Below are positions 2,729-24,044 of a stretch of 64,000 nt of DNA, one piece after another. The stretch covers positions 202,186 through 266,185 of the forward strand of contig NZ_RDBL01000002.1 in NCBI RefSeq assembly GCF_008042035.1, in the 5' to 3' direction. Source of the stretch: Streptomyces sp. col6. GTDB taxonomy: Bacteria > Actinomycetota > Actinomycetes > Streptomycetales > Streptomycetaceae. Positions within the stretch are counted from its first letter, which is position 1, and each line of letters opens with the position of its first letter. A program made the position numbers and the translations under genes. The notes under the pieces are model-generated. The model was given only the letters and a program-made list of their open reading frames with translations, was not told the DNA's origin and made no database searches.

Positions 2729-3337
2729 CTACGGAAGCAGCTCCCGGCCGGAGTCCGGCCAGGGGCCGGGGGTCGCCACCGGCTCCTCCCGCTCCGTACG
2801 GGTGTCGAACAGCTGGAAGCCGCGCCGCAGGTAGTTGGCCCTCGCATGCGGGCCGTCCTTGGAGCAGGTGTGCAGCCACACCCGCTTCGTCGCCGGCCGC
2901 TCGGGCCACCGCTCGGCCAGGTCCCAGGCGCGGGCGGTGCCGTACGACAGCAGATGACCGCCGATCCCGCGCCCCCGGAAGGCGGGGATCAGCCCGAAGT
3001 ACATGATCTCGACGACGCCGTCGTCCTGCGGGTCCAGCTCGACATAGCCGGCCGGGGTGCCGTTCGCGTACGCCACCCAGGTCTCCGCGCCCGGACGGTC
3101 CAGGGCCTCCTGCCACTGCGCGTACGTCATCCCCAGCCGGTCCGTCCACCGGACGTCGCCGCCGACCGCCGTGTACAGGAAGCGGCTGAACTCGGGCAGC
3201 GGCACCTCGGAGCGGACGATCCGGACGTCCGCGTCCGGCACGGCGGACGGCCGCAGATCATCGGGGGAGGTCTGCTCCAGGGACCAGATGGTCACCTCGT
3301 CGAGGGCCGGCTCTGCGGGACGTACGGGGTTGCTCAT
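2729..3337 (-). CDS. GNAT family N-acetyltransferase
   Basis: A 202-aa acetyl-CoA-dependent acyltransferase. The acetyl-CoA pyrophosphate-binding motif is seen in GLIPAFRGRGIGGHLL near residues 113-128. The following segment has the expected ANYLRRGFQ (N-x-x-A/L-x-x-x-Y-x-x-x-G-F type) near residue 168. The substrate cannot be told. It is a single-gene unit on the minus strand between two terminator or promoter regions. The start at 3337 is the only good ATG before the first conserved segment. Confidence 0.85.
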   Translation of the reverse strand: MSNPVRPAEPALDEVTIWSLEQTSPDDLRPSAVPDADVRIVRSEVPLPEFSRFLYTAVGGDVRWTDRLGMTYAQWQEALDRPGAETWVAYANGTPAGYVELDPQDDGVVEIMYFGLIPAFRGRGIGGHLLSYGTARAWDLAERWPERPATKRVWLHTCSKDGPHARANYLRRGFQLFDTRTEREEPVATPGPWPDSGRELLP

Positions 3338-3403
3338 GGCTGTCAGACAACCACGAGCCGCCGCCCGTGCCCAAGCCGGGTCCCGGGCACCCGCATCCCC
3401 CGC

Positions 3404-4684
3404 TCAGGAGGCCCCGCGCGCCGCCACCACCACCGGAGCCTTCGAACGGGGCAGCAGGTCGGCCGGGTGCTCCGGCTGGACCACCTCCACCTCCACGTCC
3501 TCGCCGAAGCGGTACGGGCGGTGCGCCAGCACCTCGGCGAGATGGCGCCGCAGCCGCGACATCTCCGCCCGCACCGTCACCGTCCTGGTCGCGTCACCGA
3601 ACAGGTCCTGCGCCAGCTCGGAGGCCGTACGCCCGTCCCGGTGCAGCGCCAGCGCGTACAACAGCTCGGCGTGGCGCGGGGAGAGCCGCTGGGTCCAGGT
3701 GCCCACCGGACTCACCACGTTCACCGCCAGGGAGCACGGCCGGCTCAGGTCGAGCACCACCCGGCGCGGCGGGCTGTCCATCGCCGCGTCCGCCACCTGC
3801 ACCAGCCAGCCGCCCGGCAGCGGCTCCACCCGGCACATCCCCAGCGACGGCAGCCACACCCGGCCCGGCCCCAGCGACTTCGGCAGCGGCAGCCGGTCCA
3901 CCGGGGGCATCCCCGTCACCGCCGCCGTCCAGCCGTGGCCGTCCACCGCCACCGCCCGGCCGCCGATCCGGCTCAGGACCGGGGCGGCCACCGCCCGCAG
4001 CCGGTCCACCGCCTCCAGGTGCCGCACCCGGATCTCGCTCTCCGCCAGCCGGGCCACCGACCGCACCAGTGCCAGCGTCGTCGGATGGAAGGTCGACGCG
4101 GGCCCGCTGATGTCGACGATCCCCATCAGCCGGCCGTCGCGGGGATCGCGCACCGGGGCCGCCGCGCAGGTCCAGCCGTGCAGACTGCGCACGAAGTGCT
4201 CCGCCGAGTGCACCTGCACCGGGGCGCGCGAGGCCAGCGCCGTACCGATCGCGTTGGTCCCGGTGATCTCCTCGGACCACGCGGCGCCCTCCGCGAGACA
4301 GATGTCGTCGGCCCGGCGCAGCACCCCCGTATTGCCCTCGCGCCACAGCACCCGGCCCTCGGTGTCGGTGACGACCATGATCTGCTGCGAGGCGTCCGCG
4401 ATGCTCGTCAGACCGTCGCTGAGCAGCGGCATCACCTCGCCCAGCGCGGAACTGCGGCGCCGGTGCTCGATCTCGTCCGTCTCCAGCAGCCTGCTGTGCG
4501 TCGTCTGCTCGGGATCGATGCCGCTGCGCAGCACCCGGTCCCAGGAGGCACCGATCTCCGCCCGGGGCACGGCGGGCATGCGATCGCCCGCCATCCGCGC
4601 CTCACGCGCCCGGTGCACCTGGCGTCTGGCCTGCGCGGTCTCCCGGGAGGCCGGCCGCAACACGTCGACCGGAGTCGTCTCCAT
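3404..4684 (-). CDS. GAF-domain transcriptional regulator (AcoR-type N-terminus, winged-helix C-terminus)
   Basis: A 426-aa cytosolic regulator. Residues about 40-100 resemble the AcoR-type N-terminal segment (SWDRVLRSGIDPEQ). A GAF ligand-sensor domain follows (about 100-225), including NAIGTALA and HFVRSLHGWTCAAAPVRDP. The C-terminus, about 340-410, has a DNA-binding helix-turn-helix (SPRHAELLYALALHRDGRTASELAQDLFG then TVRAEMSRLRRHL). There is no sigma-54 AAA domain. Such regulators often sit beside aldehyde dehydrogenase or alcohol-oxidation genes, but no such gene is adjacent here. A palindrome with repeated GCAAC motifs lies about 95 nt upstream and could be its own operator. Confidence 0.82.
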   Translation of the reverse strand: METTPVDVLRPASRETAQARRQVHRAREARMAGDRMPAVPRAEIGASWDRVLRSGIDPEQTTHSRLLETDEIEHRRRSSALGEVMPLLSDGLTSIADASQQIMVVTDTEGRVLWREGNTGVLRRADDICLAEGAAWSEEITGTNAIGTALASRAPVQVHSAEHFVRSLHGWTCAAAPVRDPRDGRLMGIVDISGPASTFHPTTLALVRSVARLAESEIRVRHLEAVDRLRAVAAPVLSRIGGRAVAVDGHGWTAAVTGMPPVDRLPLPKSLGPGRVWLPSLGMCRVEPLPGGWLVQVADAAMDSPPRRVVLDLSRPCSLAVNVVSPVGTWTQRLSPRHAELLYALALHRDGRTASELAQDLFGDATRTVTVRAEMSRLRRHLAEVLAHRPYRFGEDVEVEVVQPEHPADLLPRSKAPVVVAARGAS

Positions 4685-11957: not shown

Positions 11958-12941
11958 TCAGCCGCCCCGGCCCGCGCCGAGGAAGGCGAGCAGGCTGACG
12001 GCCGCCGGGCGGGCGTCGCCGACCACGCGCCGGTGGAGGTCCCGCACGGTCCGTACGACGGCCCGGGTCACCACGTCGACACCGGCCCTGCGCTCGAACC
12101 ACTGCCAGTCGCCGTGGGCGTTCATCTCCAGGAACACGGGCTCGTCCCCGGCCCGGAGGAAGTCGAACGCCCCGTAGACGGCGCCGGTCTCCCGGGCGAC
12201 GGCGCGTGCGGCCGAGGCCACGGCGGCCGGGGGCCGGACCTGGCGGACCATCACCTCGTCCGGGCGGGTCCAGATGTCCTCCGGGTGCTCCTTGGCCACC
12301 TCGAAGGCGTGCAGTTCGTCGCCGGCGAGGTAGACCCGGTACTCGGCGTCGTGCTCCACGTACTCCTGGAGCATCACCGGTGTGCCACGGGGCAGGCCGG
12401 GCAGCCCGGCGAGCCGGACCCGGTCGACGATCCGCGGCAGGTGCCAGTCGAGCCGGCCCGGCTGCGGTTCCACGTAATGCCGGTCGAGCACCTTGAGCAC
12501 GTACCGCTCGGCCGGGAGCAGCCCGGCCGCTTCCGCCGGGTCGGTGGTGACCAGTCCGCGCGGGACGCGCACCCCGAGCGCCCGTGCCCGGTCCCGCTGC
12601 GCCAGCTGCCCCGGATCGTGGGCGCCGATGGCGGCCGGGGAGGCGGCGGCCACCTGCCGGGCCAGCGCGGTCCACGCGTCCCGGAACACCATCCGCCCGC
12701 CCGCCGGGCCGGCCGGGAGCGCGGCCCGCGGCGAGAAGTGCCGCATCCAGGTCACCGTCGGGGCGAACCGGTGCCCGTCCAGGGCCAGTACACCGTCCGG
12801 CCCCTGCACCGCCCGGACGTCCGCCAGGTCGTCCGCGTCGAGCCGCCGCACGGGCACCCCGATCCGGCGCAGCAGGCCGGACACCTCGGTCGCCTCCCGG
12901 TCGCCCCGCCTGGTGAGCAGCAGGACGCACCGCTCAGCCAT
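11958..12941 (-). CDS. ATP-grasp ligase (RimK/MvdD-like)
   Basis: A 327-aa ATP-dependent carboxylate-amine/thiol ligase fold. Residues 1-95 form a pre-ATP-grasp domain (VLLLTRRGDREATEVSGLL). The ATP-grasp part includes ERYVLKVLDRHYVEP and MLQEYVEHDAEYRVYLAGDELHAFEV. The metal ligands lie in GAFDFL and EPVFLEMNAHGDW near residues 270-290. It looks like the RimK/graspetide-maturase group, which form amide or ester bonds on peptides. It is last in a five-gene coupled operon headed by the RiPP-type regulator. A modifying role on the peptide is possible but unproven. Its start overlaps the end of the GAF gene. Confidence 0.8.
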   Translation of the reverse strand: MAERCVLLLTRRGDREATEVSGLLRRIGVPVRRLDADDLADVRAVQGPDGVLALDGHRFAPTVTWMRHFSPRAALPAGPAGGRMVFRDAWTALARQVAAASPAAIGAHDPGQLAQRDRARALGVRVPRGLVTTDPAEAAGLLPAERYVLKVLDRHYVEPQPGRLDWHLPRIVDRVRLAGLPGLPRGTPVMLQEYVEHDAEYRVYLAGDELHAFEVAKEHPEDIWTRPDEVMVRQVRPPAAVASAARAVARETGAVYGAFDFLRAGDEPVFLEMNAHGDWQWFERRAGVDVVTRAVVRTVRDLHRRVVGDARPAAVSLLAFLGAGRGG

Positions 12942-13488
12942 GGGTCGGGGCCAGCAGCGATTCCGCCATCTCCAGGAGCCGCAGCGCCTTGTCGGAACGG
13001 TTGTCCGGATCGGCGGCGCGCAGCCGGGTGAGCAGTTCCAGGCCGATGGCGGCCTGGTCGGCGAGCAGGCCGAGGAGTTCGACGTCCGCCATCTCCCGTA
13101 CGCCGTCCGACCCCCGGTCCAGCACCTCCAGGACGCCGACGCACTCGTCGTCGCCGAACAGCGGGGCGGCCATGATGCTGTCGGGGACGTATCCGGTGGA
13201 GGCGGCGGCCTCGCCCGAGAAGTGCCGCGACTCGCGCAGGTCGTCGACGAGCATCGACTGACCGGAGGCGGCGACCCAGCCGGCGATGCCGGTGCCCGCC
13301 GGGAAGCGCGTACCGACCAGTTGGCCGTCGCCCTCACCGGCCACGGCCTCGAAGACCAGGTCGCCGGTCTCCGGATCGATGAGGAAGATCGAGGAGGCCG
13401 CCGCGCCGAAGACATGGCGCGCGACTTCCACGATGGACTGCAGCAGGCGGCGCTCCACGGGCGTCGCGGCGTCAACAGGTTTCGTCAT
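12934..13488 (-). CDS. Single-domain GAF protein
   Basis: A 184-aa cytosolic protein that is essentially one GAF domain (residues about 15-155, with GTGIAGWVAASGQSMLVDDL and MAAPLFGDDECVGVLEVLDR). There is no output domain, so it is probably a sensor or partner of another operon product. The start at 13488 is preceded by GGAGG at 6-nt spacing and is preferred to 13500. It overlaps the subtilase gene upstream by 17 nt and the ATP-grasp gene downstream by 8 nt. The ligand is unknown. Confidence 0.82.
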   Translation of the reverse strand: MTKPVDAATPVERRLLQSIVEVARHVFGAAASSIFLIDPETGDLVFEAVAGEGDGQLVGTRFPAGTGIAGWVAASGQSMLVDDLRESRHFSGEAAASTGYVPDSIMAAPLFGDDECVGVLEVLDRGSDGVREMADVELLGLLADQAAIGLELLTRLRAADPDNRSDKALRLLEMAESLLAPTHG

Positions 13489-14347
13489 GCGCACCTCCAA
13501 GTCGACCGGTGGTGTTCCCGGCGCAGAGGAACAGCACCGTCTTGAGCTGGAACGGTGTGAGCCAGGGGTGCTTGCCGAGGATCAGCGCGCACAGGCCCGA
13601 GATGTGCGGCGCGGCGAAGCTGTTGCCGGTCGAGCGGATGGTGCCGCCACCGGGCCACGCCACGGGCACGCGTACGCCGCGCGCGTGGAACTCCACGGGC
13701 GGCGCGGGGTTGTAGTAGTACGTCATCGGGTCGTCCTCGTCGTGGCTCGCGACGGAGATCACCGAGGAGAACGACCAGGGATAGCTGGGCACCGGCCGGT
13801 TGTGCGCGGAGACGACGAGCGCGCACCGGCGGAAGTAGGCCCGGTCCACGAGCTCGTGGAGCTGCGCGGTCAGGGCGGGCCGGGTCGTCGCCAGGCTCAG
13901 GTTGATGACGTCGAAGTTCTGCTCGATGGCCCAGGAGAGCCCGGCGATCAGGGCCGGGCCGCTGCCGGTCTTGCCGTCGGTCAGCACCTGGACGGACGAG
14001 ACCGAGACCCCCGGCGCGACGGACCGGATCACCCCGGCGCAGGCGGTGCCGTGCCCGGCGCGGTCGGTGGGCTCGCACGGCACCATCTCCACCTCGCCGT
14101 CCTCGTCCTGGACGGCCGTCACCGACAGGTCGACCGGGCCGACCATCGGATGGCCGCCCTCGACCCCGCTGTCCACGACGCACACCCGGACCCCGGAACC
14201 GTCGGCGCCGCCCCAGGCCCACTCGGGCGAGACCGAGTCCATCGGGATGGACGAGAACCCCTCCCGCGCCTGTTCCCGGGTCGCGCCCCAGGCCGGAACG
14301 CCCGGCGTGTAGGCCCTCGGAGGCCGTCTCCAGGGCGGATCGCTCAT
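13472..14347 (-). CDS. S8 (subtilisin-like) serine peptidase without signal peptide
   Basis: A 291-aa protein with a complete catalytic triad: Asp59 (CVVDSG), His99 (GHGTACAG) and Ser243 (GNSFAAPHISG). The oxyanion Asn is in SAHN (about 183). No signal peptide or membrane segment is present, so it acts in the cytosol, unlike most secreted subtilases. The prodomain is minimal. Cytosolic S8 peptidases act as leader peptidases in some RiPP pathways. Here the gene is coupled (ATGA) to the cyclase gene and lies in the operon headed by the precursor-like regulator. A leader-cleaving role is an attractive inference only. Confidence 0.87.
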   Translation of the reverse strand: MSDPPWRRPPRAYTPGVPAWGATREQAREGFSSIPMDSVSPEWAWGGADGSGVRVCVVDSGVEGGHPMVGPVDLSVTAVQDEDGEVEMVPCEPTDRAGHGTACAGVIRSVAPGVSVSSVQVLTDGKTGSGPALIAGLSWAIEQNFDVINLSLATTRPALTAQLHELVDRAYFRRCALVVSAHNRPVPSYPWSFSSVISVASHDEDDPMTYYYNPAPPVEFHARGVRVPVAWPGGGTIRSTGNSFAAPHISGLCALILGKHPWLTPFQLKTVLFLCAGNTTGRLGGAHDETC

Positions 14348-17300
14348 CGCCTCTCCTCCAGCTCGGCCAGCCACGCCCGTACCGTCCGGGCGGGGAGCAC
14401 GGCCTCCTTCGCCGTCAGCGCGGCCAGCGCACGTCCGGCCGCGCGCCGGGCACGCTCCGGTTCACCGGCGGCCTCCAGCACCAGGGCCGCCTCGGACCAG
14501 ACCTCACCGATGAGGCACGGGTCGTCGGTGCCGTCCAAGACGGCGACGGCGCGCTCGGCGTCCCCGACCGCCTCCCGGTACGCCCCGGCCCGTGCCCGGA
14601 CCCGCGCCCGCAGGGCCAGCCGGACGGCCCGGGTCCGCGTCTCCGCCGGCGGGTCCGCGGGCGGCTCGGTGAGTTCGGCCGCGTCGAGGAGGTCGTCGGC
14701 CCCGGCGCGGAACCGCTCGCGGGCCGCGTACAGCCGCAGGGTTGCCGCCGTCCGGGTCTGCCCCAGCGCGGCGAGCCCGTCGGCCGCCGCCGTGTAGTGG
14801 CCGGCGGCCGGCAGATGCGCACCGGCGAGGGATTCGACGAGCCCCGCCGTCTGGCCGGCCGCCAGGGTGCCGAGGGCCAGCGCGAGGTCGTCGCAGTGGA
14901 CGCGGACCAGCGCGATGTCCTCGCGGGCCGCGTCCACCCGGTCCGACAGGGCCAGATGCCGCGCCCGGGTCAGCAGGACCGGCACGAGCAGGCTCCGGTC
15001 GCCGTCGAACCGCCGGACCAGGTCCTCGCAGAGCGCGATGGCCTGCCCGAGCGGGGTCGGCGACCACTGCGTCAGCTCGCAGATCGACGCCAGGATGCGG
15101 TTGCCCTCATAGGTGTCGCCGAGCCCGTGCGCCCGGGAGAGCGCGTCGCGCATGGCGCCCTCCGCAGCGCCGATCCGGCCCTCGGCGAAACTCCGCAGCG
15201 AGGACAGCTGGTGCAACCTGCACCAGCTCAGGTCGTCCGCCGCGCCGGGCGCGGCATATTCGGCACCCGGGGCGTACGGAGCGCCGACGGGCTCCGGTCC
15301 GCCCGAGCGCAGGGCGATCAGCTGCCGCAGGATGGCGCAGGTGTCCCGGGTCGGGATGTCGTCCGCGTTCCCGCGCTCCGCCTCGGCCACGGCCCGCCGG
15401 GCGCTGTCCCAACGGCCCAGCGCGGCATACGCGTCGGTGATGCGGGCGGCCAGCACCCGGTGCTGGGGGTCGCCGTCCGGGGTGAGGGCGCGTCCGCGTT
15501 CCATCAGCGAGACGGCGGCGGGCAGATCGCGGCGGTGCAGCGCCCGGTACCCGGTGGCCACCAGGGCGCGGGCCGCCCGGCCGGTCAGCGCGGGCAGCCC
15601 GGGATCGCCCGGGTCCGCCTCGGACAGCAGCCGGCACGCGGACTCCAAGTGGTGGGCGAGGTCGCCCTCGGCGGCCGGGTCCGGCGCCCCCGCGTCGAGC
15701 CGGTCGGCGAGCACGGTGTGCCAGTCCGCGCGCCGGGCCTTCGAGGTCATCTCGTACAAGGTGTCCCGGGCCAGCGCGCGGGTGAACCGGTAGGCGCCGG
15801 GCGGCCCGTACGGGTGGATCACCCGGGCGCGCAGCAGCCGGCCCAGGGCGTCGTCGAGGACCCCGCCCGCCAGCGCCGGCTCGTCGTCGGCGAGCGCGCG
15901 CACGTCCTCGGCGGTGAACGACCCGCCCACCCCCGCCGCCCGCTCCAGCACGGCCCGGTCGGTGGCGGGCAGCCGGTCCAGCCAGGCGGTCAGCAGGACC
16001 CGGATCGAGGTGGGGACGCCCCGGTCCACCGACCGGGGACCGGCCAGGTTCTCCAGCAGCAGCTCGGCGAACAGCGGATTGCCGTCGCACTCCCGGACGA
16101 CCCGGGACAGCTCCTCGTCGGTGGCGACAGCCTCCTGCGCCACGACCTCCGCCCGGTCCGCGAGCAGGGCCACCAGCCGCTCGGTCTGCGCGGGCGCCAG
16201 CGCGTCGAGACGCAGCGCGAGGTCCCCGGCCGGCACCGCGCCACCCGTCTCGGCGCGCGCCACGCGGATGATCAGCAGCGGGGTGTCCCGGGCGCCCTCG
16301 GCGAGATCGGCGACCATGCCGGTGAGGGTCGGCTGCGCCCACTGGAAGTCCTCCAGGACCAGGACCACCGGGGCGTCGCGGCCCAGGGCCTCCAGAAGCC
16401 GCCGGAACGCCCACCCGATCTCGTCGACGCTCACCGGCAGTCCGTTCCCGGCGCGGATGCCGAGGGCGACGGCGAGCGCGGTGAGGGCGCGGTCCGCGCT
16501 CGGGCGCAGCGTCTCCAGCGCCCGCTGCGCCTGTTCCCAGCCGCCGGGCAGCGACCAGACCGCCTCGGCCAGCGGACGGTGGGCGAGCCCGGCCCCGTAC
16601 GCCTGGCAGCCGGCGCGCAGGACGACGGCCTCGTCCCCGACGCGGCCCAGGAACTCCCGCACCAGGCGCGACTTCCCGATGCCCGGGGGACCGGCGACCG
16701 AGACCGGGCGGCTGCGCCGTTCGTCCCGGATCTCCGCGAACTCAGCCAGCAGCAAACGCAGTTCGCCGTCGCGGCCGACGAGCGGCACCAGGTCCTCGCG
16801 GCCCGTCGCGTCGAGGACGGACACCACCCGCCGGGCGGCGACCGGTTCGCGCTTGCCCTTCACCCGCAGCGGGGCGACGGGCTCCATGCGGACCCGGCCG
16901 CCGACCAGCCCGGCCGTCTCCTCGCCGATCAGGATCTCGTGCGGCCCGGCGTGCGACTGGAGGCGGGCGGCGGTGTGCACGACGTCCCCGACCACCCGGG
17001 CCGCGCCGCCGAGCACCCCCGCCACCACGGCCTCTCCCGAGGCGATCCCGCAGTGGATGTCCAGCCGCACCCCGGGAGCGCTCGCGACGGCCGCCACGGA
17101 CTCGCGTACGGCGCACGCGGCGCGGACCGCGTGCAGCGCGTCGTCCTCATGGGTGACGAACGCGCCGAAGACGGCCATCACGGCGTCACCGATGAACTTC
17201 TCGACCACTCCGCCGTGTTCGGTGACCGCCGTGGTGCAGGCGCGGTAGTACCGGTCCATCGTGCGCCGCAGCGCCTCGGGGTCCAGGGTCTCGGCGAGCA

Positions 17301-17457
17301 CGGTCGAGCCGACGAGGTCGATGAAGAGTGCCGTGACGATTCTGCGGCTGTCCGACGAAGGCGCCCCCGCGACCACCGGTGTGCCGCAGTCGGGGCAGAA
17401 CCGGGCCCCGTCCGGCACCGCGGCACGACAGCCGCCGCATCGCACGGCACCGTTCAC
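14344..17457 (-). CDS. Adenylate/guanylate cyclase-domain and AAA ATPase protein
   Basis: A 1037-aa multidomain regulator. Residues about 1-30 form a zinc-ribbon (CGGCRAAVPDGARFCPDCG). A class III cyclase domain follows (about 38-190: FIDLVGSTVLAETLD, VVEKFIGDAVMAVFG). Next is an ATPase domain with Walker A GPPGIGKSRLV near residue 260 and Walker B VVLVLEDFQW near 360. The C-terminal half is helical and TPR/MalT-like. This architecture is common in actinobacteria, and the effector is usually unknown. The GTG start overlaps the regulator stop (GTGA) and its own stop overlaps the peptidase start (ATGA). It is therefore made in step with both. Confidence 0.88.
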   Translation of the reverse strand: MNGAVRCGGCRAAVPDGARFCPDCGTPVVAGAPSSDSRRIVTALFIDLVGSTVLAETLDPEALRRTMDRYYRACTTAVTEHGGVVEKFIGDAVMAVFGAFVTHEDDALHAVRAACAVRESVAAVASAPGVRLDIHCGIASGEAVVAGVLGGAARVVGDVVHTAARLQSHAGPHEILIGEETAGLVGGRVRMEPVAPLRVKGKREPVAARRVVSVLDATGREDLVPLVGRDGELRLLLAEFAEIRDERRSRPVSVAGPPGIGKSRLVREFLGRVGDEAVVLRAGCQAYGAGLAHRPLAEAVWSLPGGWEQAQRALETLRPSADRALTALAVALGIRAGNGLPVSVDEIGWAFRRLLEALGRDAPVVLVLEDFQWAQPTLTGMVADLAEGARDTPLLIIRVARAETGGAVPAGDLALRLDALAPAQTERLVALLADRAEVVAQEAVATDEELSRVVRECDGNPLFAELLLENLAGPRSVDRGVPTSIRVLLTAWLDRLPATDRAVLERAAGVGGSFTAEDVRALADDEPALAGGVLDDALGRLLRARVIHPYGPPGAYRFTRALARDTLYEMTSKARRADWHTVLADRLDAGAPDPAAEGDLAHHLESACRLLSEADPGDPGLPALTGRAARALVATGYRALHRRDLPAAVSLMERGRALTPDGDPQHRVLAARITDAYAALGRWDSARRAVAEAERGNADDIPTRDTCAILRQLIALRSGGPEPVGAPYAPGAEYAAPGAADDLSWCRLHQLSSLRSFAEGRIGAAEGAMRDALSRAHGLGDTYEGNRILASICELTQWSPTPLGQAIALCEDLVRRFDGDRSLLVPVLLTRARHLALSDRVDAAREDIALVRVHCDDLALALGTLAAGQTAGLVESLAGAHLPAAGHYTAAADGLAALGQTRTAATLRLYAARERFRAGADDLLDAAELTEPPADPPAETRTRAVRLALRARVRARAGAYREAVGDAERAVAVLDGTDDPCLIGEVWSEAALVLEAAGEPERARRAAGRALAALTAKEAVLPARTVRAWLAELEERR

Positions 17458-17993
17458 AGGAGCTTGATGTCCTGTCCCTCCACCTCACCGGACACCGCTT
17501 CCAGCCGCTCCTTGACGGAGTTGAGGACCTGGACCTCGTGCTCGCTGAGCCCCGAGAGGACCGAGCGCTGCTCGACCGCCAGCAGGTCCACCGGGTGGCC
17601 GGCCTCACGTAGTGCGTGCAGGGCGTCGAAGGTCATGGCTACCGGTACCTCGTTCCCGTAGTGCGGCCAGTCCAGCGTGACGCCGGCCGGTCCGATCGAA
17701 CACTCCGCGACCGCCGCCGCGAGGGCGCCGATGGCCTCGGGAGTCTCCTGCCGCTTCCGCTCCCCGGCGGGCAGCGGCGGCCAGATCCCCTGGACCAGAA
17801 CGCCCTGGGCGTACAGCCGCGCAATCATTTCCGTACGGTTCGACGCGCCCGTTCTTCGGAGCATGTTGCATAAATGGGCCGCCACCGTGTGCGGGCTGAT
17901 GCAGAGAGCTTCGGCGATATCCCGGTTCGAGGAGCCGGCGGCCACGAGCGAAGCAATGAGAATCTCACGCCTGGTCAAACCCTTTACCCCCAT
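17454..17993 (-). CDS. LuxR-type regulator with a C-terminal domain homologous to the RiPP precursor leader
   Basis: 179 aa. Residues 1-65 form a LuxR/GerE helix-turn-helix at the N-terminus (LTRREILIASLVAAGSSNRDIAEAL, ISPHTVAAHL), an unusual position for this domain. Residues 127-174 align without gaps to residues 8-55 of the 65-aa peptide encoded divergently at 18200, with 28 of 48 identities counted by eye. The alignment includes PVDLL, GLS, EV, VL, RL, AVS and VEGQ. After VEGQ it ends in DIKLL instead of the Cys-terminated core. Codon 41 is TTA (17871-17873), the bldA-dependent leucine codon, which suggests developmental control. It heads the leftward operon with the cyclase, peptidase, GAF and ATP-grasp genes. 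Confidence 0.85.
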   Translation of the reverse strand: MGVKGLTRREILIASLVAAGSSNRDIAEALCISPHTVAAHLCNMLRRTGASNRTEMIARLYAQGVLVQGIWPPLPAGERKRQETPEAIGALAAAVAECSIGPAGVTLDWPHYGNEVPVAMTFDALHALREAGHPVDLLAVEQRSVLSGLSEHEVQVLNSVKERLEAVSGEVEGQDIKLL

Positions 17994-18199
17994 TGTGGTG
18001 AGCGAAGCATGGGCCGGCAGAGGAAATACCTCACTCCCGGGGGTCAGAGTAGCTGCGGGTCATGTTCCGGACAAGAACGCCTTGAGCGGGATCACACGCC
18101 CACCGGATTCATAGTCGATCGGGGGATAGGAAGCCGGGTTGCGCCGGAGCAGCCTTGCCGTTGCACCAGCCCGTGACCGTCTCCATGAAGGAGTGACCC
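17994..18199. promoter_or_regulatory. Divergent promoter region of the putative RiPP locus
   Basis: 206 nt between the regulator start and the precursor start. It must hold both promoters. I found no perfect palindrome that would mark an operator. It is locally richer in A/T than the flanking genes. An AAGGAG ribosome-binding site sits at about 18188-18193, seven bases before the precursor ATG. Confidence 0.6.
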
Positions 18200-18397
18200 A
18201 TGTCGCAAGCACCCCTCGACGCGCTGCGCAGTGCCGGCACCCCGGTCGACCTGCTGTCGGACTCCGAGCGCGAGATCTTCAACGGCCTCAGCCCGGACGA
18301 GGTCGCGGTCCTCGGCTCGATCCAGGCCCGGCTCAACGCGGTGTCGGCCGCGGTCGAGGGCCAGGTGAACGACAACCAGGTCAACGTCCTCTGCTGA
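18200..18397 (+). CDS. Putative RiPP precursor peptide, C-terminal Cys
   Basis: A 65-aa acidic peptide with a strong ribosome-binding site (AAGGAG). Residues 8-55 form a leader-like helical region (PVDLL, GLSPDEVAVLGSI, VEGQ) that is also found at the C-terminus of the divergent regulator. The tail after VEGQ, VNDNQVNVLC, is the presumed core. It contains no Ser or Thr and ends in Cys. The following genes encode a radical SAM/SPASM enzyme, an EpiD-like flavoprotein that should decarboxylate a C-terminal Cys, an exporter and a B12-type radical SAM enzyme. The gene order and the tail chemistry support a precursor. I do not recognise a characterised family. Confidence 0.82.
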   Translation: MSQAPLDALRSAGTPVDLLSDSEREIFNGLSPDEVAVLGSIQARLNAVSAAVEGQVNDNQVNVLC

Positions 18398-18407
18398 TAC
18401 CGGCCCT

Positions 18408-18441
18408 GGCGGGCCCGGCGGCCACGGCCGCCGGGCCCGCC
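18408..18441 (+). terminator. Perfect 15-bp hairpin between the precursor and the maturase genes
   Basis: GGCGGGCCCGGCGGC (18408-18422) and its exact complement (18427-18441) flank the loop CACG. It starts 10 nt after the precursor stop. A hairpin here often acts as a leaky terminator or mRNA stabiliser, so that precursor transcript exceeds enzyme transcript. It may also slow RNA decay. Confidence 0.75.
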
Positions 18442-18491
18442 GGAGAGGACGCACCGGACCGCCGTGCGCCCGGACACCCAGTGGGAGCGTG

Positions 18492-19859
18492 ATGATGGAC
18501 CAAGTCAGCAGATACCTGGTGCTGAGCGACCGCGCGTACGCCGACACCACCGGCGTCCCGGTACGGCTCGCCTACAGCACCCGCACCGCGAGCACCGTGG
18601 CGGTGGACCTCCCCACCGCGCGGGCCCTGGAGGCCGGCGACGCCGCGGCGCTCTCCCCGGCCTGGACCGGCGCCCTGCGCGCGGCGCAGCTGCTCGTACC
18701 GGCCGGTGAGGACGAGCTGTCCGCCGTGCTCGACCGCAACCGGCAGGCGTCGGCGGACCGTTCGGCGGTGCACATCGCCCTGCTGCCGACCTCCTACTGC
18801 AACATGGGCTGCGCCTACTGCGGCCAGGAGCACACCCGGGGCGGCCTCTCCCGCACCCACCGCAGCCGGGTGAGCGACCGCGTGCTGCGCGCCGTGAACG
18901 CCCCGGAGACGCGCAGCGCCCGTATCGACTGGTTCGGGGCCGAACCGATGATGGGCTACGCGGTCATCCGCGACCTCGCCCCCCGGTTCGTCGAGGCCGC
19001 CGCCGAGCGCGGGGTCGCCTACTCCTCGGTGATCGTCACCAACGGATCCCTCCTGAACCCCACGAAAATCAACACGCTCATCCGTTCCTGCGGTGTCACC
19101 CATTTCGAGATCACGATCGACGGGCCGCCGGATATACACAATGAACACCGGCCGCTGAAAAGCGGACGCGGATCTTTCTGGAACATCGTGCGCGCCGTAC
19201 GCGCGGTACTCGACGAACCGGATCTGGGTCCCACCCATTTCTCGTTCCGGACGAATGTCGACGTACACAACCAGGACTCCGTCCCCCGTTATGTCGAGCT
19301 GATGGCGGAGTTGGGTTTCAGCCACCCCCGCGTCTCCTTCTCGATCGCTCCCGTCCACTCCTGGGGGAACGACATATCGGCGATCGAGGTGTCCAAGCAC
19401 GAGTTCGCCGAACGCGAGACGGGGTGGCTCAGGCTCCTCTCCGAGCACGGGCTGCACACCCAGCTGCTGCCGACCACCGCGCGGAAGGTCCTCTGCCCCG
19501 CCACGACCCGCTCCTCCGAGATCATCAGCAGCACCGGCAACATCTTCTCGTGCAGCGAGTACCCCCTCGTCCCCGAGGCCGAGAACACCCTCGCGCTGAC
19601 GCACATCGACCGGGCGGGTACCGAACCGGTCCGGCCGCTGGGCCCCTTCGACGGCTGGAACGAGGAGATCGCCGCGGGCAGCACCTGGTGCAAGGGCTGT
19701 GTCTTCATGCCCACCTGCGGCGGCTCCTGTCCCAAGGCCTGGCAGGAGGGCCATCCGCCCTGCCCCGGCTACAAGTACAACGTCCAGGACCGGCTGGATC
19801 TCATCGCCGCCCAGTGCGGCCTGCGCGACGCGGCCGGTGAGCCCGCCGGAGCCCGCTGA
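18492..19859 (+). CDS. Radical SAM/SPASM peptide maturase
   Basis: A 455-aa iron-sulfur enzyme. Residues 1-90 resemble the N-terminal peptide-binding region of SPASM maturases (RLAYSTRTASTVAVDL, LLVPAGEDE). The SAM-cluster motif CNMGCAYC has Cys103, 107 and 110. SPASM cysteines for auxiliary clusters lie in the C-terminal third (LCPATT, SCSEY, WCKGCVFMPTCGGSCPKAW, CPGYKYN). It probably makes a C-C or thioether link, or another radical change, on the adjacent peptide. The start is GTG 18489, ATG 18492 or ATG 18495; GGGAG at 18483-18487 fits the ATGs. Bases about 19030-19350 are less GC-rich and use rarer codons (AAA, ATA), a possible sign of transfer. Its stop overlaps the next start (TGATG). 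Confidence 0.88.
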   Translation: MMDQVSRYLVLSDRAYADTTGVPVRLAYSTRTASTVAVDLPTARALEAGDAAALSPAWTGALRAAQLLVPAGEDELSAVLDRNRQASADRSAVHIALLPTSYCNMGCAYCGQEHTRGGLSRTHRSRVSDRVLRAVNAPETRSARIDWFGAEPMMGYAVIRDLAPRFVEAAAERGVAYSSVIVTNGSLLNPTKINTLIRSCGVTHFEITIDGPPDIHNEHRPLKSGRGSFWNIVRAVRAVLDEPDLGPTHFSFRTNVDVHNQDSVPRYVELMAELGFSHPRVSFSIAPVHSWGNDISAIEVSKHEFAERETGWLRLLSEHGLHTQLLPTTARKVLCPATTRSSEIISSTGNIFSCSEYPLVPEAENTLALTHIDRAGTEPVRPLGPFDGWNEEIAAGSTWCKGCVFMPTCGGSCPKAWQEGHPPCPGYKYNVQDRLDLIAAQCGLRDAAGEPAGAR

Positions 19860-20452
19860 TGACGGCGGCGGCCGGCCCGGACACCCCGCGCCGGCTGCTC
19901 ATCGGGGTGTGCGGCTCCGGCAACGTACTCGCCGTTCCGCAGTACCTCATGGCGCTGCGCACGGGCCTCGGACCCGGTGTCGAGATCCGTATGGCCATGA
20001 CCCGCTCCGCCGCCGCGCTGATCCCGGCCGCGACCATGCGGCTGCTGTGCCGGGACGTCTACTGCGACGGGGAGGACGAACTGACGACCGGTCATGTCGC
20101 CCCCGCCGTCTGGGCGGACCGCTTCGTCGTCCTGCCCGCCACCGCCAACATGCTCGGCCAGGCCGCCAACGGACTCGCCTCGGGGCTCCTCAGTTCCGCG
20201 CTGCTCGCCCATGAACGCCCGGTGGTGTTCTTCCCGAGCATGAACAGCCTGATGTGGGAGCGCCCCGCGGTCCGCCGCAATGTGGACCGGCTGCGCGCGG
20301 ACGGCCATGCTGTCGTGGACCCGGTGCCCGCCGCCGGCTGGCAGATCTCCGCGTGCGACGTACGCAAGAACCTGGGACTGCCGCCGCCCGCGACCGTGAC
20401 GGCGGTGATCGGCGAGTTCCTGGACATGCCGGTCGGCCCGCTCGGCGGCTGA
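19859..20452 (+). CDS. HFCD-family flavoprotein, EpiD/LanD-like peptidyl-cysteine decarboxylase
   Basis: A 197-aa FMN enzyme of the homo-oligomeric flavin-containing Cys decarboxylase family. His79, the presumed catalytic base, lies 14 residues before the conserved Pro of PATANMLGQAANG (93-105), exactly as in EpiD. PSMN (126-129) is the second substrate-binding motif. Family members oxidatively decarboxylate a C-terminal Cys to an enethiol (lantibiotic/linaridin aminovinyl-Cys) or act in CoA synthesis. The Cys-terminated precursor encoded two genes upstream makes the peptide role far more likely. The ATG overlaps the radical SAM stop. Confidence 0.87.
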   Translation: MTAAAGPDTPRRLLIGVCGSGNVLAVPQYLMALRTGLGPGVEIRMAMTRSAAALIPAATMRLLCRDVYCDGEDELTTGHVAPAVWADRFVVLPATANMLGQAANGLASGLLSSALLAHERPVVFFPSMNSLMWERPAVRRNVDRLRADGHAVVDPVPAAGWQISACDVRKNLGLPPPATVTAVIGEFLDMPVGPLGG

Positions 20453-20478: not shown

Positions 20479-21846
20479 GTGGCAGCAGCCGGACACCGGA
20501 TCCGTACGGCACTGACGGGCGGACCCATGTCCGTGAGCGGCTTCCGGCTGCTGCTCGCCGGACAGCTCTCCTCCACGGTCGGCGACTACTGCTACGCCGT
20601 CGCGCTGCCCTGGCTGATCCTCTCCGGCGACGGCGGCCCGGTCCTGCTCGGCACGGTCCTGGCCTGCTACGGCATCCCCCGCGTCGTCACCATTCCGCTC
20701 GGCGGGGTGGTGGCCGACCGGATCGGCGGCCGGCGAGTCATGCTCATGACCGACCTGGTGCGCGCGGTGGCCGTCGGCACCCTCGCGGTGCTCGCCTCGG
20801 CCGGGACGCCGACGCTGGGTCAGCTCGCCCCCATCGCCGTCGTCCTGGGCGCCTGCTCCGGCATGTTCATCCCCGCCTCGTACACCCTCCTGCCCGCCCT
20901 GCTGCGCAAGGAGGACCTGGGCCGGGGCAACGCCCTGTCGACCATGGTCAACCAGGTCGGCGGGCTCCTCGGACCCACCGCGGGCGGCGCCCTGGTGGCC
21001 GCCTTCGACGCGGGCCCGGCGCTCACGGTCGACGCCGCGTCCTTCCTTGTGTCGGCGCTGGTCCTCTCCCGGATACGCTCCGGCGCGGACGCGCCGCAGC
21101 ACGACGGGTCCGACGCCACCGACGAGGCCCCGGCCCGCAAGGTGTCCTTCCCGGAACTCCTGCGCCACGGACGGCTGCTGCACGTCGTGCTGGTAGTGGC
21201 CCTCGTCTGCAACCTGGCCTTCAACGGCACGATCGAGGTGGCGCTGCCCGAACTGGCCCACCAGGGCATGGGCGCCACCGGCTACGGGATTCTGCTCACC
21301 TGTCTGAGCCTGGGCGGGCTGGCCGGTTCCCTGGTCGCCGCCCGCAGCCGTCCGGTGGAGTCGCCCGCCTATCTGTTCGCCGCGCTCGCGGTCGTCATGG
21401 GCATCGCGCTGGGCGCCGTTCCGTACGCCGGGGGCCTGGCCGGCGCCGCGGTGTGCGTCTGTGTCTACGCCCTGGCCAGCGGCTGGCAGAACATCGTCGT
21501 GGTGACGATGCTCCAGGTCTGGGCGCCGTCCGCGCTCATCGGCCGGGTCATGAGCCTGGTGATGCTGGCCGTCATGGGCACCTTCCCGATCTCCGTCGCG
21601 GTGGCCGGCTTCGGGGTCCGCCACCTCGGCGCGGCCCCCTTCTTCCCGGTGGCGGGCGGGGCCATCGCCCTCACCGTGCTGGCCGCGCTCACCCAGCGGG
21701 TGTTCCGCGACCACCGCGCCGACACCGAGTACGCCCCGCCGGTCCCCGTACCCGCCGGTGCCACCGCAGCCGGGCCCGCACCCGGTGTGCCGGCCGCCCG
21801 CTCCACGCATCCAGGGCAGGACAACAGTCAGGAGTCACAGCGATGA
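20479..21846 (+). CDS. MFS transporter, probable peptide exporter
   Basis: 455 aa with about 12 hydrophobic segments, of the EntS/MFS_3 type. MFS signatures are GGVVADRIGGRRVMLMTDLVRA between helices 2 and 3, and a related pattern in the second half. GTG at 20479 follows AGGAGG at 5 nt. The C-terminal about 45 residues are a Pro/Ala-rich cytosolic tail. Between two maturase genes, and with its stop overlapping the next start (ATGA), it is likely to export the finished product or confer self-resistance. Confidence 0.85.
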   Translation: MAAAGHRIRTALTGGPMSVSGFRLLLAGQLSSTVGDYCYAVALPWLILSGDGGPVLLGTVLACYGIPRVVTIPLGGVVADRIGGRRVMLMTDLVRAVAVGTLAVLASAGTPTLGQLAPIAVVLGACSGMFIPASYTLLPALLRKEDLGRGNALSTMVNQVGGLLGPTAGGALVAAFDAGPALTVDAASFLVSALVLSRIRSGADAPQHDGSDATDEAPARKVSFPELLRHGRLLHVVLVVALVCNLAFNGTIEVALPELAHQGMGATGYGILLTCLSLGGLAGSLVAARSRPVESPAYLFAALAVVMGIALGAVPYAGGLAGAAVCVCVYALASGWQNIVVVTMLQVWAPSALIGRVMSLVMLAVMGTFPISVAVAGFGVRHLGAAPFFPVAGGAIALTVLAALTQRVFRDHRADTEYAPPVPVPAGATAAGPAPGVPAARSTHPGQDNSQESQR

Positions 21847-24044
21847 GCGTGCTCGTCCCGTTGGGCATGCCGCGGTTCGAGGGGGACCCCGACCACGGCC
21901 GGCGGCAGGGCCGGGGCACCGGCAACACCGCGTACCTGCTGGTCAATCCGCCGGTGACGGACCCGACGACCGCTTACCACTCGATCCCGTACCTGGTGGG
22001 CGCCGCCAGGGCGGCCGGCCACACCGAGTACGCCTGTGTGGACGCCAATCTCGACGCCTTCACCTATCTCGCCGACCCCGCACGCTTCGGCGCCGCCCTT
22101 ACGGCCGCCCGCGCCCTGCGCGCCGAGATCGAGGCCAGGTCCGGCGCCCCCCGCCGCCACGACGAGATCCGCTACCGGCAGGCCCTGGCCGCCGAGGGCC
22201 TGACCGCCACTTCGGCGCGCGACGCGATCCGCGTGTTCCAGGACCCCGAGGACTTCTACCACCCGCCGACCTACGCCCAGGCGGTCGCGGTGACGAGCCG
22301 GTGGTGGGAGCTGATCGCGCTGGAGATGCCGCCCGGCACGGCGGACGGCTTCTCGATGCGGGTGAAGTCCGCCGTCAACCTGTGCAGCACGGCGGACCTG
22401 TCCGACCCCGAGGTCCCGGCGGCCGTGGCCCGCCCCTTCGAGGGGTACTTCGCCGACGAGTTCGTCCCGAAGCTGCGCGAACGCCCCTGGGCGGTGGTGG
22501 GACTCTCGGTCAACTACACCAGTCAGCTGCCCGTCGCCCTGCGGATGGCCCGCCTGATCCGGACCGTGCTGCCCGGCGCGGTGATCGTCTTCGGCGGCAC
22601 CGAGGTCGGTGACGTGGTCAAGTACGCCGACGACCCGGCGGCGGTGTGGCGGGTCTTCCAGGACGCCGACCTGATCGTTCCGGGCGAGGGCGAGAGCGCC
22701 CTCATCGGCATCCTCGACGCGGTCGGGAACGGCGCGGTACGGGGCGGGGACGCCTTCGAGGGCATCGGCGGCGTGATGACCAGGCGCCGGCCGGACCCCG
22801 TCATCGCGTACGGCAGCGTGGCGACGCTCGACACCCCGGCGTACGACGTGTGGGACTGGGACCGGTACTGGTCGCCCGAACCGGTGATCCTCTACAGCCC
22901 GACCCGGGGGTGCTACTGGAACAAGTGCACCTTCTGCGACTACGGCCTCAACACCGACCGGCCGACCTCGCCCTCGCGCGAACGCCCCGTCGACGCCGTG
23001 CTCCAGGACCTGCGGGAGGTGAGCCGCTACGGCAGGACCCTCTACTTCGCGGTGGACGCGATGTCCCCGCGCTATCTGCGCACCCTGGCCGCCGCCCTCG
23101 CGGCATCCTCCCTGGACCTGCGGTGGTCCGCCGAACTGCGGCTGGAGCGGACGTTTCCCAAGCGCGCCGTCGGTGAACTTCTCGCGGCCTCCGGCTGTGT
23201 GGCGGTCTCCTTCGGCTACGAGTCGGGCAGCCAGCGGGTCCTCGACCTCATCGACAAGGGGGTGCGGATCGACGCCGTCCCGGACGTCCTGGCCGAGCTG
23301 GCGCGCAACGGCATCGCCGCGCAGATGATGGGCTTCACCGGCTTCCCCACCGAGACCCGGGACGAGGCGCTGGAGACGTACGAGTTCCTCCGGCACCACG
23401 AGAAGCTGTGGACGACCGCCGGTATCGGCCTGTTCGCGCTGACACCCGGCTCCATCGTCGCCAAGGACCCCGGCCGGTTCGGCATCGAACTCCTGCCGCT
23501 CTCCGCCTCCGACGACATCCGGCGCTATGTGCCCTGGCGCGACCGCCGGACCGGGGAGGTGCACTGGCCGGAGTCCGAGGATCCCCGCGTCCCGCGCGAA
23601 CGCAGCGCCGGCTTCCGCAGGACCAGCTTCGACCGCCCCTTCGTCGGCGGCATCGACGCCGCGCACACCCTGCTGTACCACGCCCGCTTCGGCCGGGGGC
23701 TGCTGCCCGAGGCCCCCGAGGGCGCCGCCCGCGACGAGGAACCCCGCGTCCGCCTGGTCGAGGAACCGGTCGTGACCATCCCGTTCGCCTCCGTCGAGGG
23801 ACTGACCGGCGTCGACGACCTGATGGCGCAGGTCAGCCGGCGCAGCCGGGCACACCTGGACACCACGTCCGGCGGATACGGGGAATGGCTCGACGGGACC
23901 GGCACGGCCCGCCCCGGTGCCTGCGGGGTCCTCGTCCTCGCCCACGGCGACCTCGTCGAGGTGCCCGCCGGGGTGGACTTCGGCACGGACAACGCCATGA
24001 CCCGCGCCCTGCGCCTGATGCTCGCGACGCAGGCCCGCGCCTGA
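21843..24044 (+). CDS. Cobalamin-binding radical SAM enzyme
   Basis: A 733-aa enzyme. An N-terminal region (about 25-330) includes a Rossmann-like B12-binding domain (VGLSVNYTSQLPVALRMARLIRT, VIVFGGTEVGD). The radical SAM domain carries CYWNKCTFC with Cys357, 361 and 364. A long C-terminal extension follows (about 560-733). B12-type radical SAM proteins usually methylate unactivated carbons, or sometimes rearrange rings. It could C-methylate Val/Asn/Leu in the core or help form a ring. It is the last gene of the precursor operon, ATGA-coupled to the exporter. Confidence 0.86.
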   Translation: MSVLVPLGMPRFEGDPDHGRRQGRGTGNTAYLLVNPPVTDPTTAYHSIPYLVGAARAAGHTEYACVDANLDAFTYLADPARFGAALTAARALRAEIEARSGAPRRHDEIRYRQALAAEGLTATSARDAIRVFQDPEDFYHPPTYAQAVAVTSRWWELIALEMPPGTADGFSMRVKSAVNLCSTADLSDPEVPAAVARPFEGYFADEFVPKLRERPWAVVGLSVNYTSQLPVALRMARLIRTVLPGAVIVFGGTEVGDVVKYADDPAAVWRVFQDADLIVPGEGESALIGILDAVGNGAVRGGDAFEGIGGVMTRRRPDPVIAYGSVATLDTPAYDVWDWDRYWSPEPVILYSPTRGCYWNKCTFCDYGLNTDRPTSPSRERPVDAVLQDLREVSRYGRTLYFAVDAMSPRYLRTLAAALAASSLDLRWSAELRLERTFPKRAVGELLAASGCVAVSFGYESGSQRVLDLIDKGVRIDAVPDVLAELARNGIAAQMMGFTGFPTETRDEALETYEFLRHHEKLWTTAGIGLFALTPGSIVAKDPGRFGIELLPLSASDDIRRYVPWRDRRTGEVHWPESEDPRVPRERSAGFRRTSFDRPFVGGIDAAHTLLYHARFGRGLLPEAPEGAARDEEPRVRLVEEPVVTIPFASVEGLTGVDDLMAQVSRRSRAHLDTTSGGYGEWLDGTGTARPGACGVLVLAHGDLVEVPAGVDFGTDNAMTRALRLMLATQARA

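What the first reader, a model, noticed from the sequence alone, without database searches (positions are those of the whole stretch)
17454..18397. Regulator carries a copy of the precursor leader as its C-terminal domain
Regulator residues 127-174 and precursor residues 8-55 align over 48 positions without a gap, with 28 identities counted by eye. The two genes are divergent. The regulator lacks the Cys core. The domain may let the regulator bind the maturase (leader mimic) or sense precursor level, giving feedback on peptide production. I know of no described example of this arrangement.
Basis: seen in the sequence. Interest (0 to 1): 0.93.

Follow-up and report, generated by a model that had tools for sequence, protein, structure and literature searches.

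The report
Peptide gene nested inside regulator gene
In this Streptomyces-type bacterium a gene-control protein ends in a complete small peptide related to the front part of a likely peptide precursor encoded next door, and a conserved internal start signal predicts that the same gene also makes that peptide alone, which would likely tie production of the neighbouring peptide to its own control.

Summary
In detail: regulator residues 127-174 and precursor residues 8-55 share 28 of 48 positions without a gap, and both carry NCBIfam domain NF045560 far over its cut-off.

The reading needs changing. The regulator does not just carry a leader. It ends in a whole member of this peptide family: leader domain, VEGQ, xxKLL, in 34 of 34 close homologues. 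Its closest relative among nine compared is a free-standing peptide of another locus (74% identity, against 58% to its own neighbour). In many loci such a peptide is a separate gene just before a cyclase/ATPase-subtilase-GAF operon. Here a LuxR-type DNA-binding domain sits in front of it, in frame.

New evidence: a ribosome-binding site and ATG at the peptide's start (17636-17634, minus strand) are kept in 22 of 22 fused loci, with the strongest synonymous constraint of the gene just upstream. One gene therefore probably makes two proteins, as tipA does. A 21-bp element lies about 71 nt before the precursor in 22 of 22 such loci and in 0 of 93 others.

Feedback is plausible but untested. The partner of the domain is unknown.

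The parts
17454..17993 (-). LuxR-type regulator with C-terminal aroma-sacti peptide (179 aa from ATG 17993; 174 aa from TTG 17978)
   Evidence: GerE/LuxR HTH residues 6-57 (56.5 bits); NF045560 residues 123-174 (71.6 bits); starts
17808..17978 (-). HTH domain, about residues 6-62
   Evidence: PF00196; four helices, block pLDDT 71-92 in the model
17637..17783 (-). variable, predicted disordered linker (about residues 71-119); its last nine codons are conserved in DNA
   Evidence: distance from the SPHTVAAHL motif to FDAL 62-107 aa over 22 loci, always in frame; pLDDT below 50 for model residues 78-117
17648..17657 (-). predicted internal Shine-Dalgarno GGGAACGAGG
   Evidence: pairing energy within the best 1.9% of in-frame internal ATGs; synonymous identity peak
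17454..17636 (-). predicted free 60-aa peptide from internal ATG 17636-17634: leader domain, VEGQ, DIKLL
   Evidence: 32 of 34 homologues have Met within 3 residues before FDAL; free-standing MTFDAL peptides of other loci start at the same Met
18108..18128 (+). conserved 21-bp element TTCATAGTCGATCGGGGGATA, 71 nt before the precursor ATG; candidate operator or promoter element
   Evidence: 22 of 22 fused loci, 0 of 93 other loci; no other site in the window with up to 3 mismatches
18200..18397 (+). likely RiPP precursor, 65 aa: leader domain, VEGQ, VNDNQVNVLC
   Evidence: NF045560 residues 5-55, 67.1 bits; 14 relatives
18489..19859 (+). radical SAM/SPASM-type protein
   Evidence: PF04055; TIGR04463 185.6 bits, below its cut-off of 525; same family in 21 of 22 fused loci, the contig of the other (L126) ends before it
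19859..20452 (+). flavoprotein decarboxylase-like (CoaC/CypD superfamily)
   Evidence: PF02441 75.4 bits; CypD model 16.8 bits, cut-off 215
20479..21846 (+). MFS transporter, likely exporter (start chosen by eye)
   Evidence: TIGR00900 191.7 bits, below its cut-off of 319.6, for 20521-21846
21843..24044 (+). B12-binding-type radical SAM protein
   Evidence: PF04055 48.6 bits; PF02310 30.3 bits, just below its cut-off of 32.1
14344..17457 (-). cyclase/AAA ATPase protein with weak TPR matches (CYC); its GTG start overlaps the regulator stop (GTGA)
   Evidence: PF00211, PF13191; family found in 88 of 106 loci
13472..14374 (-). S8 subtilase
   Evidence: PF00082 99.4 bits; QhpE and mycosin models below cut-off; family found in 85 of 106 loci
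12934..13500 (-). GAF-domain protein
   Evidence: PF01590 65 bits; family found in 85 of 106 loci
11958..12941 (-). ATP-grasp protein, ribosomal-peptide-maturase-like
   Evidence: TIGR04187 81 bits, below its cut-off of 350; no Pfam match; family found in 19 of 106 loci

Best explanation
The regulator gene joins a LuxR-type DNA-binding domain in frame to a complete aroma-sacti family peptide (leader domain, VEGQ, KLL tail), and a conserved ribosome-binding site and ATG at the start of that peptide predict that the same gene also yields the 60-residue peptide alone. Shown by sequence: the fusion, its conservation, the tail, the internal start signals, the overlap with the cyclase gene and the 21-bp element before the precursor. 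Inferred: the DNA-binding form acts at the precursor promoter through the 21-bp element. Inferred: its peptide part is a sensor handle. The neighbouring cyclase/ATPase, subtilase, GAF and ATP-grasp proteins handle the free peptide, the tethered peptide and perhaps the precursor leader alike. Free peptide or leader would compete with the tethered copy, and so report precursor and processing state back to the promoter. This is the layout of tipA (TipAL and TipAS), with a leader-type peptide in place of a drug-binding domain.
For: Fusion under selection: 22 loci (19 distinct), distance from HTH motif to FDAL 62 to 107 aa, always in frame and without a stop. Whole-peptide layout: last five residues xxKLL in 34 of 34. 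Internal start: Shine-Dalgarno energy -8.9 to -13.0 kcal/mol in 22 of 22, all among the best 5.2% of 3935 in-frame internal ATGs and 21 among the best 1.9%; three different sequences serve (GAGG, GGAGG, GAAGGG). Nine codons before the ATG have codon identity 0.897 against 0.656 elsewhere; 23 of 100000 random column sets reach it; outside the linker the next rise is at the gene's end, where the cyclase start lies. Free-standing homologues begin at the same Met. Precursor promoter: 21-bp element in 22 of 22 fused loci, among them L137, which was not used to build the motif and where regulator and precursor are collinear with four genes between them, and in 0 of 93 others. Operon partner: peptide gene next to the cyclase-subtilase-GAF genes also in loci without the radical SAM families. 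HTH and peptide domain are predicted as separate helical domains; the precursor has the same helix order. An HTH relative without the peptide exists (L138), as expected if the two parts were joined.
Against: No interaction, cleavage, DNA binding or short product has been measured. The 22 loci were picked for having both HTH motif and FDAL and are related, so '22 of 22' is not 22 independent tests. The spacing of the internal Shine-Dalgarno (9-11 nt to the ATG) is longer than usual. Two of 34 homologues (P0026, P0034) have no Met at the start of the domain. The conserved DNA before the ATG could serve another role. Cognate regulator/precursor pairs are barely more alike than all pairings on average (0.497 against 0.488, permutation 0.016), and shared descent may explain even that. 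The 21-bp element may be a sigma-factor promoter and not an operator; none of the loci scanned separates the regulator from the precursor.
Confidence: 0.5

Rival explanations
1. Leader mimic for the maturase: the regulator's C-terminal domain binds the SPASM enzyme, or another leader-recognising enzyme, so free maturase keeps the regulator busy until precursor displaces it.
For: Positions L..LR.AG.PVDLL....R.....L...EV.VL.....RL.A....V.GQ are at least 90% conserved in both proteins over 17 pairs. StsA-related peptides carry the same domain, and the leader of StsA is bound by an RRE protein (PMC12710340, passages).
Against: Four loci of another family have such a peptide and operon without the radical SAM families of the other loci. 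No PqqD-type RRE reaches the cut-off in the own genome; other RRE types were not sought. The StsA site bound by its RRE is a WxxP motif near the core; in the StsA-related peptide L170 a WxxP lies behind the shared domain, and it is absent here. The regulator domain is nearer to several free peptides than to the precursor.
Confidence: 0.2
2. The C-terminal part is a second true RiPP precursor or signal peptide: subtilase cleavage after VEGQ releases a KLL-type tail, and the fusion to an HTH only couples its synthesis to the regulator.
For: Tail invariant in 34 of 34; free-standing family peptides have the same layout with other short tails (IKLA, ELKLV, AGGALF); subtilase and ATP-grasp genes follow on the same strand.
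Against: The tail is only five residues, with no known modification chemistry; no processing is shown; the HTH would then be an unexplained burden kept in every fused locus.
Confidence: 0.2
3. The helical domain is a plain oligomerisation module shared by regulator and precursor and has nothing to do with sensing.
For: Three-helix fold predicted in both; HTH proteins of this class usually work as dimers (general knowledge).
Against: The domain occurs as free peptides with conserved tails after it, which a dimer module would not need. Foldseek finds no significant solved relative of the precursor model (best E 3.8), which is neutral for so small a fold.
Confidence: 0.15
4. Artefact: two adjacent genes, an HTH gene and a peptide gene, that merely lack a stop codon between them.
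For: The peptide keeps its own start signals; annotation starts the protein behind the HTH in 17 of 34 homologues; an HTH relative without the peptide exists (L138).
Against: Nineteen distinct sequences with motif distances from 62 to 107 aa stay in frame without a stop. The HTH evolves as protein: amino-acid identity 1.0 with codon identity 0.57 in one window.
Confidence: 0.05

Closest known systems
NCBIfam NF045560 aroma-sacti cluster domain
   Same: Both regulator and precursor match the model far above its cut-off; source records already use the name
   Different: The tools showed only the model's name and scores, not its description; I saw nothing there or in a paper on HTH fusion, tail or internal start
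TipAL/TipAS of Streptomyces lividans (PMC7762955, passages read)
   Same: N-terminal HTH, C-terminal effector domain, two start codons in one gene giving the full regulator and the C-terminal domain alone (there reported, here predicted)
   Different: LuxR-type and not MerR-type HTH; the effector part is a precursor-leader relative and not a drug-binding fold; no ligand known
StsA/StsC sactipeptide system (PMC12710340, passages read)
   Same: Two StsA-related peptides (L108, L170; 131 and 136 bits, cut-off 75) also match NF045560 over its cut-off
   Different: StsA-related peptides have a CxC core; a separate RRE protein is reported for StsA; no CYC, subtilase or GAF gene was called in the StsA-related locus L170
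Rgg/SHP control of RaS-RiPP clusters in streptococci (PMC13361665, search listing and start of abstract only)
   Same: A regulator and a small peptide beside a radical SAM RiPP cluster
   Different: There, regulator and peptide are separate genes (recalled); here the peptide is part of the regulator gene

Membership tests
NF045560 aroma-sacti domain | score over the curated cut-off of 30 bits | tested here: met
   71.6 bits regulator, 67.1 bits precursor
LuxR/GerE HTH | score over Pfam gathering cut-off of 23.5 bits | tested here: met
   56.5 bits; LuxR-type HTH folds are the top structure matches
NF045559 StsA-related sactipeptide | score over 75 bits | tested here: not met
   precursor 24.8, regulator 31.6 bits
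NF045559 StsA-related sactipeptide | CxC core | tested here: not met
   precursor has one Cys, at its end; regulator tail has none
TipA-type dual-product regulator | second in-frame start with ribosome-binding site before the C-terminal domain | tested here: met
   sequence signals only
TipA-type dual-product regulator | short product observed in cells | not testable with these tools
   needs a tagged strain
TipA-type dual-product regulator | MerR HTH and TipAS domain (PF07739) | tested here: not met
   neither among the 10 Pfam families listed for the regulator at E up to 1
TIGR04463 SPASM maturase | score over 525 bits | tested here: not met
   185.6 bits
CypD peptide-cysteine decarboxylase NF033753 | score over 215 bits | tested here: not met
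   16.8 bits
Leader-mimic inhibitor of a maturase | binding of the maturase by the regulator domain | not testable with these tools
   no complex prediction or binding assay available

The most novel reading that the evidence does not exclude
One gene is both a transcription factor and a RiPP-type peptide precursor: the peptide is made free from its own internal start and tethered behind the DNA-binding domain. The operon's subtilase and ATP-grasp process its VEGQ-xxKLL tail, and the cyclase/ATPase reads the result, so the regulator senses the fate of its own peptide and of the neighbouring precursor.
Probability: 0.27. Interest if true: 0.9.

Novelty: new variant of a known kind. Interest (0 to 1): 0.72.

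Why it matters
How actinobacteria decide when to switch on silent peptide clusters is an open practical question. A regulator that carries a relative of the peptide it controls would be a built-in sensor of precursor and processing state, and a genetic handle for switching such clusters on. The internal start is a sharp, cheap test. The domain gene goes with a conserved cyclase/ATPase, subtilase and GAF gene set in 88, 85 and 85 of the 106 loci examined, so an answer here would bear on many loci for which I found no description.

Tried and rejected
Rejected: chance similarity; a common helical motif. Leaned against, not excluded: that the domain is a recent copy of the neighbouring leader. The precursors form a separate group with 100/100 support and some regulator domains group with free KLL-tailed peptides, but holding regulators and precursors together as one clade is not rejected (p 0.117).

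Led nowhere: PADLOC gave only matches of general domains; Foldseek of the precursor model had nothing significant; no PqqD-type RRE over cut-off in the own genome; paper searches on the domain name, on leader-like domains and on regulator fusions gave nothing on point.

Rows dropped: 3 of 22 fused loci as duplicates before the codon tests. In the first tree row L050_0 was a wrong protein taken by my gene caller; it and five long or odd rows (two of them StsA-related, one of them type C) were left out of the second tree. In one search the precursor pattern found 20 of 22 pairs, 17 distinct. The synonymous test counts only pairs with the same residue, so variable linker windows lean high; the window PHYGNEVP before the ATG has amino-acid identity 0.80 and is not of that kind. 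Of the 39 proteins, the last five cover 25-37% of the query and were left out of the counts on 34. Against my reading: L138 has the HTH without the domain.
Full report
WHAT WAS CLAIMED AND WHAT IS THERE. That is exactly right; the ungapped score of 133 compares with a maximum of 46 in 1000 shuffles. Both segments are the NCBIfam domain NF045560, 'aroma-sacti cluster domain', at 71.6 and 67.1 bits against a cut-off of 30. The regulator's N-terminal part is a LuxR/GerE helix-turn-helix (56.5 bits).

THE REGULATOR ENDS IN A WHOLE PEPTIDE, NOT JUST A LEADER. One search lists 39 homologues; the first 34 cover at least 70% of the query, the last five only 25-37%. All 34 end in xxKLL: DLKLL 26, DIKLL 4, ELKLL 3, ALKLL 1. 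The layout is leader domain, VEGQ or nearly so, short tail. Free-standing peptides of the family have the same layout with other tails (IKLA, ELKLV, AGGALF). The precursor's tail is VNDNQVNVLC or a variant ending in Cys. The regulator domain of the window shares 42 of 57 positions with a free-standing peptide of another locus (L044) and 29 of 50 with its own neighbour; of the peptides of other loci compared only L108 is less alike to it than the neighbour is. In a tree of 37 rows the precursors form one group with 100/100 support, and three of the 11 regulator domains fall with the free KLL-tailed peptides with modest support; few columns are available, and a regulator-plus-precursor clade is not rejected (p 0.117).

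WHERE THE DOMAIN LIVES. A family-wide scan found the domain in 91 of 394 genomes (87 over the cut-off), the class scan in 13 of 394 and the phylum scan in 6 of 396 (the last two samples include five and three genomes of the own genus), the 14 control genomes in none. I fetched 89 loci from the 86 other genomes over the cut-off; with 16 named loci (L122-L137) and the window this makes 106 loci, some of them the same strain twice. With a simple gene caller of my own, the cyclase/AAA ATPase protein (CYC) is in 88 of 106, an S8 subtilase in 85 and a GAF protein in 85; the loci were chosen by the domain or the regulator, not by these genes. In the cyclase-bearing loci the domain gene usually lies directly before CYC. 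In the window the regulator stop and the CYC start overlap (GTGA, 17454-17457). Four loci of another family (L162-L165) have a free peptide ending in LKLV, then CYC, subtilase and GAF, with an ATP-grasp and a SARP-like regulator upstream, and no gene of the radical SAM families of the other loci at blastp 1e-4; ten further genes of L162 scanned with Pfam show no radical SAM domain. A further set has the peptide before a SARP regulator in place of CYC; in three of these (L056, L067, L069) another LuxR-type HTH lies in frame in front, and L108 is a diverged fourth case with CYC. By my reading of the open frames, HTH fusions thus occur in 10 of the 87 genomes looked at. Whether they arose once or more is open; a WP motif follows the HTH in the cases compared.

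THE FUSION IS REAL AND SELECTED. In 22 loci, 19 distinct, from Streptomyces, Streptomycetaceae MP113-05, Streptacidiphilus and an actinobacterial MAG, HTH and domain lie in one frame without a stop although the distance from the SPHTVAAHL motif to FDAL varies from 62 to 107 residues. These loci were picked for having both motifs. Of the 21 loci that the regulator alignment brought in, five match only the HTH; one of these, L138, is a real relative of the HTH, WPP motif included, with another C-terminus and no other gene family of the cluster in 10 kb, so the HTH part also exists without the peptide. In the model of the window's regulator the linker has pLDDT below 50, the HTH 71-92 and the three-helix domain 69-85 by blocks. 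The precursor model has the same helix order.

AN INTERNAL START. In 32 of 34 homologues a Met stands within three residues before the FDAL of the domain; P0026 and P0034 lack it. The DNA before it reads GGGAACGAGGTACCGGTAGCC-ATG in most loci, GGAAACGGAGGGCCGGTTGCC-ATG in S. jiangxiensis, where the protein changes and a Shine-Dalgarno stays, and GTGAAGGGACGGTCGGC-ATG in the MAG. Pairing energy with the anti-Shine-Dalgarno is -8.9 to -13.0 in 22 of 22: all within the best 5.2% and 21 within the best 1.9% of 3935 in-frame internal ATGs. These loci are related and not independent. Codon identity at conserved residues averages 0.897 over the nine codons before the ATG and 0.656 elsewhere; 23 of 100000 random column sets reach it, and it is the top contiguous window; in eight divergent sequences it is 115/153 against 1528/2940. 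The next rise that does not overlap it is at the gene's end, before the CYC start (0.82), which serves as a natural positive control. In most loci the regulator's own start looks like a TTG, so the short form may well be the more abundant; that is inference.

A TARGET AT THE PRECURSOR PROMOTER. A 21-bp element (18108-18128) lies 69-79, mostly 71, nt before the precursor ATG in 18 of 18 distinct divergent loci. The matrix built from these finds it in 21 of 21 other fused loci and in the window, including L137, which was not used for the matrix and in which regulator and precursor are collinear with four genes between them; there too it lies before the precursor. Of 93 other loci (1.18 Mb) none scores above 10.7, against 28.6 or more. 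It has no other match in the window with up to 3 mismatches; its 18-base core has two further places in the genome, each with 3 mismatches, as many as the reversed control pattern gives. Operator and promoter core cannot be told apart here, since the other loci lack both regulator and precursor of this type.

HOW IT PROBABLY WORKS. Shown by sequence: HTH fused to a complete family peptide, internal start signals, overlap with CYC, and a cluster-specific element at the precursor promoter. Inferred: the long form binds that element; the free and tethered peptides, and perhaps the precursor leader, are handled by the same operon proteins; competition between them sets the regulator's state. The nearest known layout is tipA, where two start codons give TipAL and TipAS (PMC7762955, passages). 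A true second precursor with a released KLL tail is the boldest reading and is not excluded.

CO-EVOLUTION. Cognate regulator and precursor domains are hardly more alike (0.497) than all pairings on average (0.488), permutation 0.016 over 17 pairs. This gives little support to a tight regulator-precursor contact.

WHAT IS KNOWN. The shared domain is curated in NCBIfam and appears in protein names, so the homology itself is not new. Searches of the held papers for the domain name, for leader-like domains and for RiPP regulator fusions found nothing on this arrangement; subscription papers are mostly not held. I call it a new variant of a known kind: a predicted dual-product regulator of tipA layout whose effector part is a RiPP-leader relative.

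Noticed in passing
   Followed up: partly
18200-18397 and P0040-P0053: Two core types, VNDNQVNVLC-like and DSNTNVVC-like, sit behind near-identical leaders (P0042 against the window), which suggests core swapping.
   Followed up: no
18200-20452: A precursor ending in a single Cys next to a flavoprotein decarboxylase-like gene would fit decarboxylation of the C-terminal Cys; the flavoprotein is far below the CypD cut-off.
   Followed up: no
21843-24044: B12-type radical SAM gene conserved in fused loci; in L096 and L101 a relative lies right behind a family peptide, with no SPASM-family gene called.
   Followed up: no
L047 and similar family loci: A common arrangement: radical SAM, haem-oxygenase-like protein, GGALF-tailed family peptide, CYC, subtilase, GAF, divergent to a class III lanthionine synthetase (NF038151, 669.6 bits, cut-off 575) with small Cys peptides.
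   Followed up: partly
L056, L067, L069: A different LuxR-type HTH in frame before an IKLA-tailed family peptide with Shine-Dalgarno AAGGAGGGG, followed by a SARP (AfsR-like) gene in place of CYC.
   Followed up: partly
L138:2066-2533: An HTH-WPP protein related to the regulator (64% to L137) with a different C-terminus and no peptide domain.
   Followed up: partly
L103:5995-6991: Two divergent, closely related 63-aa family peptides with GIF tails, in front of radical SAM and CYC genes.
   Followed up: no
L108: One locus holds both an HTH-peptide fusion with CYC (3186-3641) and, 11 kb on, an StsA-related sactipeptide (131 bits).
   Followed up: no
17808-17978: Third-position GC of the HTH part is lower than in the rest of the gene in 4 of 6 loci checked (WIN, L105, L132 and, slightly, L134; not L102 or L137).
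   Followed up: no
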